Shown: positions 41,869-60,620 of the stretch, piece by piece | Layout: every line of letters begins with the position of its first letter | Position numbering within the stretch: position 1 is the first letter of the stretch | Source: Halolamina sp. CBA1230 | Lineage (GTDB): Archaea > Halobacteriota > Halobacteria > Halobacteriales > Haloferacaceae | Direction of reading: 5' to 3' | Assembly: GCF_002025255.2 (NCBI RefSeq) | Contig: NZ_CP054587.1 | Coordinates: 1,798,001 to 1,862,000 of the forward strand | DNA: 64,000 bases | Made by a program: the position numbers and the translations under genes | The notes under the pieces: generated by a model | What the model was told of the DNA's origin: nothing | Seen by the model: only the letters and a program-made list of their open reading frames with translations | The model's database searches: none

Positions 41869-43929
41869 ATGAGCGACTCCGAGAGCGGTCCGCTCTCGCC
41901 GGACCAACCCGACGCCGAACGACCGTTCCGCGTCGACGCCCCCTTCGAGCCCGCGGGCGACCAGCCCGAGGCGATCGAGCAGCTCGCGGCGGGGTTCCGC
42001 GAGGGGATGGACCGGCAGACGCTGCTGGGCGTGACTGGGTCCGGGAAAACGAACACCGTCTCCTGGCTGATCGAGGAGATCCAGCAGCCCACCCTCGTCA
42101 TCGCCCACAACAAGACGCTCGCGGCCCAGCTGTACGAGGAGTTCCGGGAGCTGTTCCCGGACAACGCCGTCGAGTACTTCGTCTCCTACTACGACTACTA
42201 CCAGCCCGAGGCGTACGTCGAGCAGTCGGACACGTTCATCGAGAAGGACGCCTCGATCAACGACGAGATCGACCGCCTGCGCCACTCCGCGACGCGCTCG
42301 CTGCTCACCCGCGAGGACGTGATCGTCGTCGCCTCCGTCTCCGCCATCTACGGGCTGGGTGACCCGCGGAACTACGTCGACATGTCCCTGCGACTCGAGC
42401 AGGGCCAGCAGATCGACCGCGACGAACTGCTGGGGCGGCTGGTCGACCTGAACTACGAGCGCAACGACGTCGACTTCACGCAGGGCACGTTCCGCGTCCG
42501 GGGCGACACCGTGGAAATCTTCCCGATGTACGGCCGCTACGCCGTGCGCGTGGAGTTCTGGGGCGACGAGATCGACCGTATCCGGAAAGTGAACACCCTC
42601 GAGGGCGAGGTCGTGAGCGAGGAGCCGGCCGTGCTGCTCCACCCGGCGGAGCACTACTCGATCCCGGAGGACCGCCTGCAGGAGGCGATGGCCGAGATCG
42701 AGGAGCTGATGGAGGACCGCGTGCGCCACTTCGAGCGACAGGGCGACCTCGTCGCGGCCCAGCGGATCGAGGAGCGAACCACGTTCGACCTCGAGATGCT
42801 GCAGGAGACGGGGTACTGCTCGGGGATCGAGAACTACTCGGTCCACCTCTCGGACCGCGAGCAGGGGGAGGCGCCGTACACGCTGCTCGACTACTTCCCC
42901 GACGAGTTCCTCACCGTCGTCGACGAGTCCCACCAGACGCTGCCGCAGATCCGCGGGCAGTTCGAGGGCGACAAATCCCGCAAGGACTCGCTGGTCGAGA
43001 ACGGGTTCCGCCTCCCGACCGCTTACGACAACCGCCCGCTCACGTTCGAGGAGTTCGAGGCGAAGACCGACGAGACGCTGTACGTCTCGGCGACGCCGGG
43101 CGAGTACGAGCGCGAGGAGTCCGACCAGATCGTCGAACAGATCGTCCGACCAACCCATCTCGTCGACCCCGCGGTCGAGGTCACGAGCGCGCAGGAGCAG
43201 ATCGACGACCTGATGGACCGCATCGACGAGCGCATCGAGAACGACGAGCGCACGCTCGTCACCACGCTCACCAAGCGGATGGCCGAGGATCTCACCGAGT
43301 ACCTCGAGGAGGCGGGCGTGAACGTCGCGTACATGCACGACGAGACCGACACGCTGGAGCGCCACGAGATCATCCGCTCGCTCCGCCTCGGCGAGATCGA
43401 CGTACTCGTGGGTATCAACCTCCTCCGTGAAGGACTCGACATCCCCGAAGTGAGCCTCGTCGCGATCCTCGACGCCGACCAGGAGGGGTTCCTGCGCTCG
43501 GAGACGATGCTGGTCCAGACGATGGGTCGCGCCGCGCGGAACGTCAACGGCGAGGTGGTGCTGTACGCCGACAAGCGCACCGACGCGATGACGAGCGCCA
43601 TCGAGGAGACCCGCCGGCGTCGGGCGATCCAGCAGCGCTACAACGAGGAACACGGGTTCGAACCGACCACGATCCAGAAGGAGATCGGCGAGACGAACCT
43701 CCCGGGGAGCAAAACCGACGCCTCCGGCGCCGCGAACGCGGAGGTCGGCGACGCCGACGACGCGGCTCGCCAGATCGAGCAGTTGGAGGACCGGATGGAG
43801 GAGGCGGCCGACAACCTCGAGTTCGAACTCGCGGCGGACATCCGCGACCGCATCAGGGAGCTCCGCGAGGAGTTCGACCTCGACGGCGGCGACGAGGGCG
43901 TCGCGCCGGAACCCGACGCGGAGTTCTAG
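41869..43929 (+). CDS. uvrB: Excinuclease ABC subunit B
   Basis: A 686-aa DEAD-like ATPase of bacterial-type nucleotide excision repair, found in haloarchaea. Walker A is in [20 protein letters not shown] (about residues 53-62). The beta hairpin and DNA-binding part are [20 protein letters not shown], and helicase motifs such as [20 protein letters not shown] and [20 protein letters not shown] follow. The C-terminal UVR domain [20 protein letters not shown] binds UvrC. uvrA and uvrC are not in the window. Confidence 0.97.
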
Positions 43930-44825
43930 CGCGTTCGGGCTGACGGTGTCAGCGTCTCGGTCCTGTCGCCGAGGAGGCCGCCGTCGTCGGTTTCGTTCCC
44001 GTCGTCAGTCTCGGTTCCGTCGTCAAGGAGGCCGCCATCGTCAGTTTCGTTCCCGTCGTCGAGAAGCCCATCGTCGTCGCCATCGTCAGTCTCGTTTCCG
44101 TCGTCGAAGAGATCGCCGTCGTCAGTTTCGTTCCCGTCGTCGAGAAGGCCGCCGTCGTCAGTTTCGTTCCCGTCGTCGAAGAGACCGCCGTCGCCATCAT
44201 CAGTCTCGTTCCCGTCGTCGAAGAGACCGCCGTCGATCGGGGCGTGTTTCGAGGCGTTGAGCGATCCGAGCCCGCCGATCACCTCGCCCGCGATCGCGCG
44301 GGCTGCCTCGGCGACCTCGCCACCGCCGGTACGGTTGGCCTGCTGGAGGATCGAGCGCACCTGACTCACGTTCGCGCCGTGTTCTCGGAGCGTGGGCTCG
44401 GGCAGCGACGCGGCGGCGGTCGCGGTCTGATCCGCTCGCCGCTCGACCGCCCGGATCTGGGCGCTCAGCCCGGCGAGCTGGGCCTGGTACTGGGCCTGAC
44501 CGATGCTACCGTTCTCGTAGGCCTGCTTGAGGCGGGTCTTCTCGGCTTCGAGTTCCTCGATCCGTTCGGCCAGCCGCTGCTGCTGCTGGGCCACGATCCG
44601 CGCTTTCGAGCCGTTGGACGCCGCGGCCGCCAGCTGCCGGGTGAGCGAACGCTGTGCGATTTCGCTGTCGATCTCGGCTTCCTGGACGCCGACGACGCCC
44701 GCGAACGCGGCACCCGGCTCCGGTCCGTCCGCCGGCGTGGCCTGCGCGCTGGACAGCGTCGCGGCCGCGGGGACGCTGCCGACGAGCACGGCGAGGGCGA
44801 CGGCGACGACAGCGGCTCGGTTCAT
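43926..44825 (-). CDS. Secreted coiled-coil protein with acidic tandem repeats
   Basis: A 299-aa exported protein: signal peptide ([20 protein letters not shown]), a coiled-coil ([20 protein letters not shown], then [20 protein letters not shown]), and a C-terminal third of about six repeats built on DDGNETDDG with GLF or GLL spacers. Each repeat has an N-E-T sequon, so it may be glycosylated. Its TAG is shared with the TAG of the convergent uvrB (43926-43929, sequence CTAG). The repeat length may vary between strains. Confidence 0.78.
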
Positions 44826-44920
44826 ACCCGACAGATCAGACACCCACTCCTAAAAACCGTCCACTCCCTCCACTCGGGTTCACCCCGATTAACCGAGTTT
44901 AACGCCGTGTCACCGAACGA

Positions 44921-47007: not shown

Positions 47008-47397
47008 ATGCCAACCGTCGAATACCTCAACTACGAAGTGCTTGACGACCACGGCTGGTCGATGGACGACGACGACCTGTTCGAGCAGGCCGCCGACGCG
47101 GACCTCGACGCCGAGGACTACGGCACGCTCGAAGTGAATCAGGGCGAGTACATCCTCGAGGCGGCGGAGGCGCAGGGGTACGACTGGCCGTTCTCCTGTC
47201 GCGCCGGCGCGTGTGCGAACTGCGCCGCCATCGCGAAGGAGGGCGAGATCGACATGGACATGCAGCAGATCCTCAGCGACGAGGAGGTCGAGGAGAAGGA
47301 CGTCCGCCTGACCTGTATCGGCTCGCCCGCCACCGACGAGGTCAAGATCGTCTACAACGCCAAGCACCTCGACTACCTCCAGAACCGCGTCATCTGA
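47008..47397 (+). CDS. fdx: 2Fe-2S ferredoxin, Halobacterium type
   Basis: A 129-aa haloarchaeal ferredoxin, the electron carrier for 2-oxoacid dehydrogenases. Cysteine ligands are Cys64, Cys69 and Cys72 in [17 protein letters not shown], and Cys103 in LTCIGSP, matching the spacing known for Halobacterium. It has the halophilic acidic N-terminal insertion ([20 protein letters not shown]). ATG 47008 is the standard start; a CTATAT box 26 bp upstream suggests a leaderless transcript. It is the last clear core gene before the second mobile region. Confidence 0.96.
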
Positions 47398-49648: not shown

Positions 49649-49945
49649 ATGAATCCGCTACACACCGCGGCTGAATCGACAGCAGAAGCAGCATCAATCA
49701 GCCCGACTGGCATGTTCGTCGTCGGGGTCGGCGTTACGCTCGTCGGCGTCTATCTGCTCTACCACAACCCGGGGAAGGGACCGTACTGCAGCGACTGTGA
49801 CATCCACGCCACACACGACTCAGACTACTGCCCCGTCTGCGGCTCGGGCGACCTGGAACAGCACCAGCGTCCGCGAGGCATCGATAACCTGGCGGAGTGG
49901 GCAACCAACCTCGGTCAGACCACGGACGGTGATGGCGATGAGTGA
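49649..49945 (+). CDS. Membrane-anchored zinc-ribbon protein
   Basis: A 98-aa protein: one N-terminal transmembrane helix (MFVVGVGVTLVGVYLLYH) followed by CSDCDIHATHDSDYCPVCGS, two CxxC pairs making a zinc ribbon, and an acidic tail DGDGDE. First gene of a tight plus-strand cluster; its end shares a 23-bp sequence with the next gene's end. Function unknown. Confidence 0.65.
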   Translation: MNPLHTAAESTAEAASISPTGMFVVGVGVTLVGVYLLYHNPGKGPYCSDCDIHATHDSDYCPVCGSGDLEQHQRPRGIDNLAEWATNLGQTTDGDGDE

Positions 49946-50159
49946 CGATGCACATGCCGGGACCCACTGGGATGACTGCCCGACATGCGGCACCCACACT
50001 GATGTAAACATCTACCAGATACACTGGTACGAACTGAAGGTCATACAGGTACGTTTTTGCTCCGAATGTTGCACCAAATACGCGGCGGAATTTGAATTCT
50101 CGGAGCGGGATATCATACGTGACGCCCCATCAGACCCGGACGGTGATGGCGATGAGTGA
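49938..50159 (+). CDS. Zinc-ribbon protein, 73 aa
   Basis: MSDDAHAGTHWDDCPTCGTH with CxxC, then a second pair in RFCSECCTKYAAEFEF. It ends DPDGDGDE, identical at DNA level to the end of the preceding gene. ATG 49938 overlaps the TGA of the previous ORF; an ATG six bases earlier is possible. Confidence 0.6.
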   Translation: MSDDAHAGTHWDDCPTCGTHTDVNIYQIHWYELKVIQVRFCSECCTKYAAEFEFSERDIIRDAPSDPDGDGDE

Positions 50160-50304
50160 TGAAATCCTCGTTATGTGCGACGGCGCCGATGGTGACGGCA
50201 CCCGCTGCGACCGGCTGTTACTCGTCCCGGCAGATACGCGCGATGCGGCGCACTACTGCCCCGAACACCAACCAGGAAGCGACCGCAGCAAGGTGACAGC
50301 ATGA
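50152..50304 (+). CDS. Small zinc-finger protein, 50 aa
   Basis: MSDEILVMCDGADGDGTRCD, then HYCPEHQPGSDRSKVTA: Cys and His ligands (C-x9-C, H-x-C-x-x-H) suggest zinc. It starts at the same kind of repeated junction as the preceding gene and overlaps the next start by four bases. Confidence 0.55.
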   Translation: MSDEILVMCDGADGDGTRCDRLLLVPADTRDAAHYCPEHQPGSDRSKVTA

Positions 50305-51258: not shown

Positions 51259-51332
51259 CCGGTGTGAGAAGGTTCTGCTAACCACCCGATTCTGCCGAGA
51301 ACACTACTCAGACACGCCCTAATCGGTGGTAT

Positions 51333-51358
51333 CCCCACAGCCTTAAACTCATAAAAGT
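51333..51358 (+). promoter_or_regulatory. Duplicated promoter cassette, copy 1
   Basis: A 26-base block containing CACAGCCTTAAACTCATAAA is identical to 52585-52610 and sits the same 16 bp ahead of an ATG (51374 here, 52626 there). TTAAAC as TATA core lies about 27 bp from the ATG, so both transcripts should be leaderless. Confidence 0.7.
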
Positions 51359-51373
51359 GCTAATAATATCCAT

Positions 51374-51715
51374 ATGGAACTAAATGCAATCGAGAGCTAC
51401 AACGACATAGCTTCACACGACCTCCAGCACAGCACCACAGAACACATCGTCTCCCTCCTCAACACCGGACTTGACGGTATCGTGCACGTCCCTCGGTGGC
51501 TCACCGAGGAAGAAGACGTCCCGACGGTCGGACCCGACGACAACCTCGTAGTCGGCGATATCGCAGACCACAGCGAGAAGTCAATCCGCATCACCACCGC
51601 CAACGACAACGAGCACTACCTCCCCAAGTCGCAAGTCACGGTGTTCGTACGCGGTAGCGAACGCATCGACTCCCCGCAGCAGGGACTCACCGACTACGGA
51701 GGTGAACAGCGATGA
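51374..51715 (+). CDS. Hypothetical protein, 113 aa
   Basis: Begins MELNAIESYNDIASHDLQHS; DGIVHVPRWLTEEEDVPTVG and SIRITTANDNEHYLPKSQVT suggest a small beta-barrel-like domain. Its stop overlaps the next ATG. Expressed from the duplicated promoter. No family recognised. Confidence 0.5.
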   Translation: MELNAIESYNDIASHDLQHSTTEHIVSLLNTGLDGIVHVPRWLTEEEDVPTVGPDDNLVVGDIADHSEKSIRITTANDNEHYLPKSQVTVFVRGSERIDSPQQGLTDYGGEQR

Positions 51716-51951: not shown

Positions 51952-52016
51952 CCCCGTAACTGAACGGGGGTTCTGTTGCACCCTGTAACGTGCGTCGGTT
52001 CTTTTTTAACCGTGAC

Positions 52017-52166
52017 TATGAAACTGGGTAAATATTATAAGTCTCCCTGTCGTATCTAGGGATGCAGTTACCCCAGAAACCCGTCGTAACCACAACGGTC
52101 GATCCTCACTGTGTGTCGTCGCACACAGGCAACTGTCCCGCGATCAATGGGGTCATTTTCGACCCC
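52017..52166 (+). ncRNA. Structured non-coding element, copy 1 (candidate small RNA)
   Basis: Starts with a TATA-like GTAAATATTATAAG, then AGGGATGCAGTTACCCC. Two hairpins follow: CTGTGTG (52109-52115) with 52122-52128, and GGGGTC (52149-52154) with 52161-52166. The same elements occur in copy 2 at 52340-52482. The region has no credible ORF. Transcript direction is inferred from the TATA position. Confidence 0.55.
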
Positions 52167-52258
52167 GCGCCCTTGAATTCCCTAGCTGTAGTAGTGTCGT
52201 ACACCCCCTGTGTCGTTTTCTGGAACTGCTGGTAAGGCGCGTAGCAACGTTCGAGTCA

Positions 52259-52269
52259 GCAGTTACCCC
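52259..52269 (+). repeat. Third GCAGTTACCCC box
   Basis: GCAGTTACCCC occurs here and at 52064-52074 and 52387-52397. The middle copy lies in the spacer between the two structured elements, in the right arm of a short ACTGCTG/CAGCAGT inverted repeat. Confidence 0.6.
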
Positions 52270-52339
52270 TTGTGCCTTGTTACCAAAGCACAATGGGTAA
52301 GATGCGTCGGTAGCCCTCAACGCTGTTGTTTACTCTCAT

Positions 52340-52482
52340 TATGAATTTGGATAAACATTATACGCCCCGGTATCGTAACTAGGGATGCAGTTACCCCGAA
52401 AACACCCGTAACGGTTGCTCCTCACTGTGTGACCTACCACACAGGAAACTGTGCTGTCAACGATGGGGTCTCTTTTGACCCC
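52340..52482 (+). ncRNA. Structured non-coding element, copy 2 (candidate small RNA)
   Basis: Parallel to copy 1: a TATA-like ATAAACATTATAC, TAGGGATGCAGTTACCCC, then hairpin CTGTGTG (52425-52431) with 52438-52444, then GGGGTC (52465-52470) with 52477-52482. Both stems are identical to copy 1, while the loops differ (TCGTCG against ACCTAC; ATTTTC against TCTTTT). Conserved stems with free loops suggest RNA structure. Confidence 0.55.
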
Positions 52483-52584
52483 TCCCTGTCCCTTACTTCC
52501 GAAACACCCCATGTCCTTGTGAGGGGTGAGTCGAGAACCCCGAAGTGCCGATTCGATGCGTCTCAGTACCCTGTTCGACCGTTT

Positions 52585-52610
52585 CCCCACAGCCTTAAAC
52601 TCATAAAAGT
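52585..52610 (+). promoter_or_regulatory. Duplicated promoter cassette, copy 2
   Basis: Identical to 51333-51358 over 26 bases and 16 bp ahead of ATG 52626. See copy 1 for spacing. Confidence 0.7.
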
Positions 52611-52625
52611 ATTAACTATATCCGT

Positions 52626-52892
52626 ATGTATATAACAGATGAGGAGTTGCGAGAAGTACAGGAAAAAGACACGCATGAAGCCGTTCGAACGCTCATATCG
52701 GAGTACGACGCGGTGCTTTTCGAACTGCTTCGAAATGACCGCCGAGTTGACCTCAAGCTGCATGACGCGCTGCTCGAAGCCATCGTTCAGGATGCAGTCG
52801 AGGAGCTGTCGATGGACTCCATCAGGGAGATCAAGAGCGTGGATGACCCCGAGGTGTCGGTTTCTGTCGAGGTGAACTTCGATGAATCTTGA
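52626..52892 (+). CDS. Hypothetical protein, 88 aa
   Basis: MYITDEELREVQEKDTHEAV, a largely helical acidic protein with RTLISEYDAVLFELLRNDRR and DAVEELSMDSIREIKSVDDP. It uses the copied promoter, and the next gene starts within its end. No family recognised. Confidence 0.5.
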   Translation: MYITDEELREVQEKDTHEAVRTLISEYDAVLFELLRNDRRVDLKLHDALLEAIVQDAVEELSMDSIREIKSVDDPEVSVSVEVNFDES

Positions 52893-53372: not shown

Positions 53373-54161
53373 ATGGAACAGAAATACACAATTGTTGACC
53401 TGTACTGCGGCGCTGGTGGCGTCGGGCTCGCCCTTGACGACATCAGCACCGAATACGAAATCGACATCGAACACATAGGAATCGACATCGAAGACCACCA
53501 TGACACATATCCCGGAAACTTCGTGCAAGGGGACTGCAGCGACCCAGAATGGCTCGACGCCATGCTCCCCAACGACATTGACCTTCTGTGGCTCTCCCCA
53601 CCGTGCACCGCGTACAGCACACTCAGCTACGCGAACAAGCACGAACTCGGGTTCGACGATCCGCGCGACCACTACCCGACCATAGACGACCTCAACGTCC
53701 ACGAAGTTATCGACCGCCTCGACCCGGACGAATACATCATCGAAAACGTGGCGACCTGTGAAGACCTCCGGGAACCGGCGAAGCTGAACGGGCTCGCGTT
53801 CGACGAACCCTACGACCTCGAACGACACTTCGAGACATCCTTCGATGCCCCGAACAACGTTGTGACGGGCGAACCGTCAGTTCCGCTGACAACAGTGTCG
53901 GACGATTCACAATCGCAGTCGGCGAAACCGATTGCCCGCGCGAAAGGCGTTCCCGAAGATTGGGGGTCGCAGGTAATTCGCTCCGCTATCCCGCGGTCCT
54001 ACGTGCAGTACCTGCTGCACTACTGCCCAGTCGTCGATGTGCCACTACCGACTGCTGCAGCACCGAAACAGACGCTGTGGAGCGACTACACGGCACGCGG
54101 ACACCCCCTGCGTGACATCTTAACGATTGCCCGACGGGCAGTTCGCGGGGTGGGTATCTAA
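53373..54161 (+). CDS. DNA cytosine-C5 methyltransferase-like protein
   Basis: A 262-aa protein, short for a C5 methyltransferase. Motif I is VDLYCGAGGVGLALDDI (residues 9-25), motif IV LLWLSPPCTAYSTLS with the catalytic Pro-Cys, motif VI YIIENV, and a motif X-like SAIPRSYVQYLLHYC. The target recognition domain is very small, and motif VIII is not obvious, as in many viral orphan enzymes. ATG 53373 follows a TATA at 53317-53328. Its TAA overlaps the recombinase ATG by one base. Confidence 0.82.
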   Translation: MEQKYTIVDLYCGAGGVGLALDDISTEYEIDIEHIGIDIEDHHDTYPGNFVQGDCSDPEWLDAMLPNDIDLLWLSPPCTAYSTLSYANKHELGFDDPRDHYPTIDDLNVHEVIDRLDPDEYIIENVATCEDLREPAKLNGLAFDEPYDLERHFETSFDAPNNVVTGEPSVPLTTVSDDSQSQSAKPIARAKGVPEDWGSQVIRSAIPRSYVQYLLHYCPVVDVPLPTAAAPKQTLWSDYTARGHPLRDILTIARRAVRGVGI

Positions 54162-54760
54162 TGCAGATTGAACCGTTCACTGACGACGATGGGTACCGCT
54201 GCTGGCTCTCGGAGACCGAACAAGACCAGCTCACCAGTCACTACCACACGGAACCGAAGAAGCGACTCGCCATCGAGCTGATGCTCGATGGGCTGCGCAG
54301 CGAGGAAGTGCCGAGGGTTGCGACGCGGGACTTCCGGCGGCTCGACGCCGACGAGGAAGCATACAAACTCCGCGTCAGGGAGGGCAAAACCGGGTGGAGA
54401 GAGTGTCCGGTGAGCAACGATACCCACACCCTCGCGCAGACGCTGAAGAACGCGAGCGGCACAACGAAAGAAGATCCGCTCGTGGACGTGTCCTCGCGAA
54501 CCGTGCAGCGGTGGGTGTCGAGCGCGGCAGAAGCACTCGCCGACAGCACAGGGAACACTGATTGGCACCACGTCACCGCGCACGACCTGCGACGCACATG
54601 GGCGACGACGACCTACTACGGGCTGTCAGCGCCGTACGCACTGGACGTAATCATGCAGTGGGGCGGGTGGACCGACGGCGACACCTTCCGAAACAACTAC
54701 CTCGGCAAGGAACCGGATGACCTCGCAGTGTCGATGATGGACGAAGCCGGACTCCGATAG
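54161..54760 (+). CDS. Tyrosine recombinase, catalytic domain only
   Basis: A 199-aa integrase-like protein that lacks the usual N-terminal arm-binding and core-binding domains. Catalytic residues by position: Arg46 (LDGLRSEEV), Lys76 (REGKTGW), His141 and Arg144 (HDLRRTW), Trp170 (GGWTDGD) in place of the second His, and Tyr180 (RNNYL). It is coupled to the DNA methyltransferase gene. It could catalyse element integration or resolution, or be an N-terminally truncated fragment. Confidence 0.78.
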   Translation: MQIEPFTDDDGYRCWLSETEQDQLTSHYHTEPKKRLAIELMLDGLRSEEVPRVATRDFRRLDADEEAYKLRVREGKTGWRECPVSNDTHTLAQTLKNASGTTKEDPLVDVSSRTVQRWVSSAAEALADSTGNTDWHHVTAHDLRRTWATTTYYGLSAPYALDVIMQWGGWTDGDTFRNNYLGKEPDDLAVSMMDEAGLR

Positions 54761-60468: not shown

Positions 60469-60620
60469 CCCTCGGTCAGCAAAACCGCAAGACTGCGTCG
60501 GGATAAATTAGAGTGACCGAGGTGACTGAGGGTAAATCCGAAATTGTAGAGTTTATGAGAAAATAGTTATCGCTCTCACAAAATGAAGAAAATTGCGTTT
60601 ACCCTCGGTCACCTCGGTCA
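60469..60620. other. Candidate replication origin with inverted iterons
   Basis: TGACCGAGGTGACTGAGGGT at 60514-60533, continuing AAA, is mirrored at 60598-60620 with one mismatch in 23 bases, so each arm has two TGACYGAGG units. A fifth unit, CCCTCGGTCA, lies at 60469-60478. The 61-bp centre (60537-60597) is AT-rich. It lies 125 bp upstream of the SF3 helicase gene. This is the classic iteron, unwinding-region, initiator layout. Confidence 0.65.

What the first reader, a model, noticed from the sequence alone, without database searches (positions are those of the whole stretch)
52017..52482. Duplicated structured element: stems conserved, loops free
Copies at 52017-52166 and 52340-52482 share a TATA-like start, the GCAGTTACCCC box, a CTGTGTG/CACACAG hairpin and a GGGGTC/GACCCC hairpin in the same order and spacing. 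Stems are identical while both loops differ, the mark of selection on pairing. No ORF fits. A third GCAGTTACCCC box lies between them. I know of no named family like this, so it is a candidate new small RNA or antitoxin-type RNA, or a protein-bound DNA array.
Basis: partly seen in the sequence, partly recalled or inferred. Interest (0 to 1): 0.8.

Follow-up and report, generated by a model that had tools for sequence, protein, structure and literature searches.

The report
Duplicated hairpin element in archaeal provirus
A virus genome lodged in a salt-loving archaeon carries two side-by-side copies of a short, apparently non-coding stretch whose promoter, start-site box and two hairpin stems stayed identical while the rest drifted. 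It is most likely a pair of small structured RNA genes, known so far from this one genome.

Summary
Two tandem copies (52003-52166 and 52326-52482, 76-78% identical) share a TATA box, the box GCAGTTACCCC and two hairpins. All 26 stem bases are unchanged, against 7 of 12 loop bases changed (P about 2e-4 to 3e-4). GCAGTTACCCC occurs three times in the 3.47-Mb genome, all within these 334 bp. The pair sits in a 24.8-kb pleolipovirus-like provirus integrated at the 3' end of a ferredoxin gene, not in a plasmid.

The TATA box lies about 25 bp before the box in both copies, so the start site should fall on GGATGCAGTTACCCC. The box and hairpins then form the first ~105 nt of a transcript. One correction: copy 1 does hold a 57-aa ORF at a leaderless-type ATG, but substitutions show no coding pattern and a 7-nt indel breaks the frame in copy 2.

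No relatives were found in 391 class and 392 order genomes (covariance model), viral, phage and plasmid collections, or Rfam. None of the 19 pairs shows a compensatory change, so 'selection on pairing' is unproven; sequence-specific DNA sites explain the stems equally well. Best reading: two paralogous provirus units making short structured RNAs. Moderate confidence; function not shown.

The parts
52003..52166 (+). Unit 1 of the duplicated element (promoter, box, stems P1-P3)
   Evidence: Direct repeat families D1 and D2; alignment A1
52326..52482 (+). Unit 2 of the duplicated element
   Evidence: Direct repeat families D1 and D2, 76-78% identity; 7-nt deletion relative to unit 1
52030..52039 (+). 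TATA box of unit 1 (AAATATTATA), about 25 bp upstream of GGATGCAG
   Evidence: Sequence; haloarchaeal promoter elements described in PMC4983044; not tested experimentally
52353..52362 (+). TATA box of unit 2 (AAACATTATA), same distance to GGATGCAG
   Evidence: Sequence and alignment
52064..52074 (+). Box GCAGTTACCCC, copy 1, at the predicted transcript start
   Evidence: Only three exact copies in the whole genome
52387..52397 (+). Box GCAGTTACCCC, copy 2, at the predicted transcript start
52259..52269 (+). Third box GCAGTTACCCC, without a promoter, between the units
52263..52300 (+). Hairpin whose 5' arm is the third box (TTACCC-CTTGTGC...GCACAA-T-GGGTAA); closes unit 1, possibly a 3' end
   Evidence: Fold of 52254-52312: -22 kcal/mol, z = -3.1
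52109..52128 (+). Stem P2 of unit 1, CTGTGTG-TCGTCG-CACACAG
52425..52444 (+). Stem P2 of unit 2, CTGTGTG-ACCTAC-CACACAG
52149..52166 (+). Stem P3 of unit 1, GGGGTC-ATTTTC-GACCCC
52465..52482 (+). Stem P3 of unit 2, GGGGTC-TCTTTT-GACCCC
52131..52136 (+). AACTGT, can pair with GCAGTT of box 1 (stem P1 enclosing P2); equivalent 52447-52452 in unit 2
   Evidence: In the MFE fold of unit 1 but not of unit 2; invariant in both; weaker than P2 and P3
52505..52528 (+). Hairpin CACCCC...GGGGTG after unit 2, possibly a 3' end
   Evidence: Fold
52062..52235 (+). 57-aa ORF in unit 1 at a leaderless-type ATG; judged probably not a conserved protein
   Evidence: no family match, no convincing homologue; codon test

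Best explanation
Two paralogous small transcription units of a pleolipovirus-like provirus, made by tandem duplication of a ~320-bp unit. Each has its own archaeal promoter (TATA box about 25 bp before the start) and makes an RNA that begins at GGAUGCAGUUACCCC and folds into two rigid hairpins with free loops, P2 (CUGUGUG/CACACAG) and P3 (GGGGUC/GACCCC). The first ~105 nt are the conserved part; the transcript may run on to a downstream hairpin (52263-52300 for unit 1, 52505-52528 for unit 2). The most likely role is a regulatory RNA of the provirus, the invariant 5' box and stems being the parts recognised by a protein or shared target and the loops being free to diverge. Shown: the duplication, the constraint on box and stems, the promoter-like layout, the provirus location. 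Inferred: that it is transcribed, that it folds in the cell, and that it regulates.
For: Stems 0/26 changed against loops 7/12. Two shared hairpins arise in 0 of 20,000 column shuffles. Each hairpin set lies downstream of a TATA box at the same distance, so box and stems fall inside the predicted transcript; haloarchaeal promoters have a TATA box and most protein-coding transcripts have no leader (PMC4983044). Folding is more stable than shuffles, moderately: z = -1.7 and -2.4 for the two copies, -3.1 for the third-box hairpin, -2.3 for 52060-52300. No reading frame shows a coding-type substitution pattern. P2 and P3 have no further intact copies in the window, as expected for parts of one RNA rather than operators spread over many promoters.
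Against: No compensatory change at any pair, so pairing itself is not shown to be under selection. Fold z-scores of the two cores are modest. No T-rich terminator follows P3. No expression data. No homologue in any collection searched, so constraint rests on a single pair of sequences. Unit 1 carries a 57-aa ORF at exactly the leaderless position.
Confidence: 0.48

Rival explanations
1. A DNA regulatory array: the dyads CTGTGTG-N6-CACACAG and GGGGTC-N6-GACCCC and the three GCAGTTACCCC boxes are binding sites for provirus or host regulators that control the two promoters and perhaps neighbouring promoters.
For: Stem sequence is identical, not merely paired. Both dyads have 6-bp spacers, a usual operator geometry. 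The box sits at the predicted start of transcription in two copies and recurs once without a promoter. A neighbouring promoter region is also duplicated (51317-51383 / 52569-52635, 79%).
Against: The two dyads have different sequences and lie about 50 and 90 bp downstream of the predicted start, far for archaeal repressor sites. Neither dyad recurs intact elsewhere in the window. The box is not palindromic.
Confidence: 0.25
2. A duplicated leaderless small-protein gene: unit 1 encodes a 57-aa Cys/His-rich peptide (MQLPQKPVVTTTVDPHCVSSHTGNC...), and unit 2 is a decayed copy with a 7-nt frameshift.
For: ATG 52062 lies exactly where a leaderless mRNA would start; 72% of H. volcanii protein-coding transcripts are leaderless (PMC4983044). 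The frame reads PHCVxxHTGNC in unit 1 and again, out of register, in unit 2.
Against: In that frame 8 of 11 changed codons are non-synonymous, which is no sign of purifying selection. The 7-nt indel separates the start from the conserved stretch in unit 2. No family match and no convincing homologue in 167 family genomes or plasmids; the one weak hit is a chance match near an unrelated gene, with no matching small ORF. The changes avoid the stems rather than non-synonymous positions.
Confidence: 0.14
3. A recent tandem duplication with no function beyond its promoters; the stem pattern is chance plus hindsight.
For: Only one pair of sequences is available. Hairpins with stems of at least 6 bp are common in this provirus, about 3.8 per kb. 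No relative exists to show long-term conservation.
Against: The third box is outside the duplicated block.
Confidence: 0.13

Closest known systems
Haloarchaeal intergenic sRNAs (e.g. H. volcanii sRNA132, PMC6560208)
   Same: Intergenic, short, own archaeal promoter, no conserved ORF.
   Different: Known ones are shown to be expressed; this is a tandem pair in a provirus, with no expression evidence and no match to any described RNA family (Rfam none). No direct comparison with individual published sRNAs was made.
CreTA CRISPR-regulated RNA toxin-antitoxin modules (PMC8501985, PMC9458426)
   Same: Small RNA genes known from haloarchaea, mini-ORF-like starts.
   Different: No CRISPR-like repeat in the units. 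The genome has one solitary match to the haloarchaeal repeat pattern tried, elsewhere.
Operator arrays of temperate viruses
   Same: Repeated boxes and dyads around paired promoters in a lysogenic element.
   Different: The dyads lie inside the predicted transcripts, differ in sequence from each other, and are not repeated intact elsewhere in the window.
Pleolipoviridae (host element; His2, HRPV-1, HHPV-4)
   Same: The provirus has a spike protein related to His2 VP1 and HRPV-1 VP4 and a downstream ATPase-like gene.
   Different: At ~24.8 kb larger than the 7-16 kb pleolipoviruses matched; carries a D5-type primase and an ISP restriction enzyme. The element was not found in the phage collection, which holds these viruses.

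Membership tests
Structured non-coding RNA family | Base pairs kept through compensatory changes in homologues | tested here: inconclusive
   19 pairs, none varies between the two copies; no further homologues
Structured non-coding RNA family | More stable folding than composition-matched shuffles | tested here: inconclusive
   z = -1.7 and -2.4 for the cores, -2.3 and -1.5 for extended transcripts
Structured non-coding RNA family | Transcription from its own promoter | not testable with these tools
   TATA at the expected distance in both copies; no expression data
Any Rfam family | Match above the gathering score | tested here: not met
   No match in the window; the only weak hit is SNORA16 at E 2.6 on the other strand
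Protein-coding small gene | Excess of synonymous over non-synonymous change | tested here: not met
   3 synonymous, 8 non-synonymous codons in the best frame; frame broken by a 7-nt indel
CreTA RNA toxin-antitoxin | CRISPR-repeat-like sequences in the antitoxin RNA | tested here: not met
   The only match to the haloarchaeal repeat pattern in the genome (up to 3 mismatches) is at C1:1337987, far from this locus; more degenerate repeats would be missed
Type I or other antisense-RNA toxin-antitoxin | Antisense RNA complementary to a toxin mRNA | tested here: inconclusive
   The two units are in the same orientation; no exact reverse-complement copy of the box in the genome. Only the box was tested genome-wide
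Pleolipoviridae (host provirus) | Spike protein and downstream core genes | tested here: met
   Spike vs His2 VP1 E 4e-53 and HRPV-1 VP4 E 4e-45; PHROG and weak AAA match of a downstream ATPase-like protein. Formal genus assignment not tested

The most novel reading that the evidence does not exclude
A new class of paired, self-contained structured RNAs carried by pleolipovirus-like proviruses, with an invariant 5' box and stems and free loops, in which a third box downstream of unit 1 gives an alternative pairing partner; the RNA pair would set the lysogenic state or expression of the neighbouring methyltransferase/restriction region.
Probability: 0.2. Interest if true: 0.65.

Novelty: new member of a known kind. 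Interest (0 to 1): 0.4.

Why it matters
My literature searches turned up no described regulatory RNA of a pleolipovirus or its proviruses, though the library is partial. If transcribed, this pair would be a ready test case: two natural variants with identical stems and different loops in one genome. If instead it is a DNA array, it would mark a control region of a provirus whose relatives are otherwise poorly understood. As it stands the element is an orphan in one genome, which limits its weight.

Tried and rejected
Coding gene: 57-aa ORF and all six frames tested, no support. Rfam: nothing. Homologues: blastn in 170 family genomes, plasmids and phages, only self; covariance model in 391 class and 392 order genomes, only self, two weak hits (E 0.3-0.5) with broken or missing stems judged chance. 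Pattern scans of viral contigs: two hits are repetitive, probably coding sequence in unrelated viral contigs; 46 further loci re-scored with the model, none matches. Genome-contig patterns: none, or one Streptomyces hit judged chance. CreTA/CRISPR link: one solitary repeat elsewhere, no array within the 3 kb read. Neighbour genes as a handle on syntenic relatives: 51712 ORF only in self, 52626 ORF only weak hits; provirus ATPase relatives at 25-31% identity.

Full report
Observation. The two copies are real and at the stated place. The repeat finder reports 52003-52080 / 52326-52403 (76%) and 52094-52166 / 52410-52482 (78%), offset by 323 and 316 bp because of one 7-nt indel. A short upstream match (51985 / 52297) suggests the duplicated unit is about 312-323 bp. 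The box GCAGTTACCCC is present at 52064, 52259 and 52387 and nowhere else in the 3.47-Mb genome on either strand.

Beyond chance. Over the 73-nt block, the 26 stem bases carry no substitution, the 12 loop bases carry 7, and the other 35 carry 9; P(no change in stems) = 2.9e-4. Over all 163 aligned columns (42 substitutions) it is 2.0e-4, and 2.9e-6 with the box included. In 20,000 column shuffles none kept two shared hairpins. These tests used features picked out beforehand by eye, so they are somewhat optimistic. A further shared stem, GCAGTT/AACTGT, encloses P2, but it is only in the minimum-energy fold of unit 1. None of the 19 pairs varies.

Coding. Copy 1 in fact has a 57-aa ORF (52062-52235) whose ATG is where a leaderless haloarchaeal mRNA would start. 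It is unlikely to be a maintained protein: changed codons in that frame are 3 synonymous to 8 non-synonymous, the 7-nt indel puts unit 2 out of frame, there is no Pfam match, and no convincing homologue was found.

Promoter layout. Each unit has AAA(T/C)ATTATA about 25 bp before GGATGCAGTTACCCC. Haloarchaeal promoters carry a TATA box and BRE upstream of the start, and 72% of H. volcanii protein-coding transcripts are leaderless (PMC4983044). The predicted start thus falls on or next to the conserved box, and P2 and P3 lie within the first ~105 nt. Folding is moderately more stable than shuffles (z -1.7 and -2.4 for the cores; -3.1 for the third-box hairpin; -2.3 and -1.5 for longer transcripts). 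No T-run follows P3; hairpins at 52263-52300 and 52505-52528 may mark the 3' ends.

Context. The locus lies in an integrated provirus. A 19-bp direct repeat CTCCAGAACCGCGTCATCT at window 47377-47395 and L011:8212-8230 (genome C1:1870212-1870230) flanks about 24.8 kb. The left copy is the 3' end of a ferredoxin-like gene (named from its sequence, not searched), and a tyrosine integrase (L011:6522-7556, minus strand) lies beside the right copy. G+C drops from about 0.68 to 0.50-0.60 inside. The element has a spike protein related to His2 VP1 (E 4e-53) and HRPV-1 VP4, an ATPase-like protein and a D5-type primase, a C5 methyltransferase fragment and an ISP-type restriction enzyme. It is a pleolipovirus-like provirus. 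Larger genomes in integrase-bearing pleolipoviruses are described (PMC10599561).

Relatives. A covariance model of the two copies found only these two in the own genome, in 391 class genomes and in 392 order genomes (the two samples overlap); two weak hits have broken or missing stems. blastn in 170 family genomes, plasmids and phages gave only self. Pattern scans of viral and genome contigs gave nothing or hits judged chance. Even the adjacent small ORFs are orphans or nearly so.

Mechanism. I judge a pair of small structured provirus RNAs most likely (0.48): box and stems are inside the predicted transcripts, the two dyads differ in sequence from each other, and neither recurs intact elsewhere in the window. 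A DNA operator array (0.25) explains exact sequence conservation and the third, promoterless box. A decayed leaderless gene pair (0.14) and hindsight on a neutral duplication (0.13) remain possible. Nothing identifies a target. A toxin-antitoxin role has no support: no toxin family nearby, both units in the same orientation, no exact antisense copy of the box, and no match to the CRISPR repeat pattern in the units.

Verdict. Confirmed observation, partly supported interpretation, orphan element. I score interest 0.4. It is statistically solid and easy to test, but it rests on one genome and has no shown function.

Noticed in passing
window 47377-47395 and L011:8212-8230: 19-bp direct repeat bounding a ~24.8-kb provirus; the left copy is the last codons of a 2Fe-2S-type ferredoxin gene, so the integration site appears to be a protein gene's 3' end rather than a tRNA.
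   Followed up: partly
window 60514-60620: Long imperfect inverted repeat (47-nt arms, 77% complementary, 13-nt centre) with a TGACCGAGGTGAC-type motif just upstream of the D5-type primase gene; candidate replication origin.
   Followed up: no
window 51317-51383 and 52569-52635: A second duplicated promoter region (79% over 67 nt, with a shared TCCCCACAGCCTTAAACTCATAAAAGT core) upstream of two small ORFs, flanking the element on both sides.
   Followed up: partly
genome C1:1337987-1338016 (L022:1501-1530): A solitary copy of the haloarchaeal CRISPR repeat with no array within the 3 kb read, near a long G-run; only one match to the pattern tried in the whole genome.
   Followed up: partly
window 53373-54158 and 54161-54757: C5 methyltransferase matching only the first third of the Pfam profile, followed at once by a 199-aa integrase-like protein; both look like fragments or reduced forms.
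   Followed up: no
window 49923-49948 and 50137-50162: 26-nt repeat (96%) containing GATGGCGATGAGTGA at the stop/start junctions of neighbouring small ORFs.
   Followed up: no
window 43926-44843 (minus strand): Protein with a low-complexity tail of [12 protein letters not shown]-type repeats, outside the provirus.
   Followed up: no
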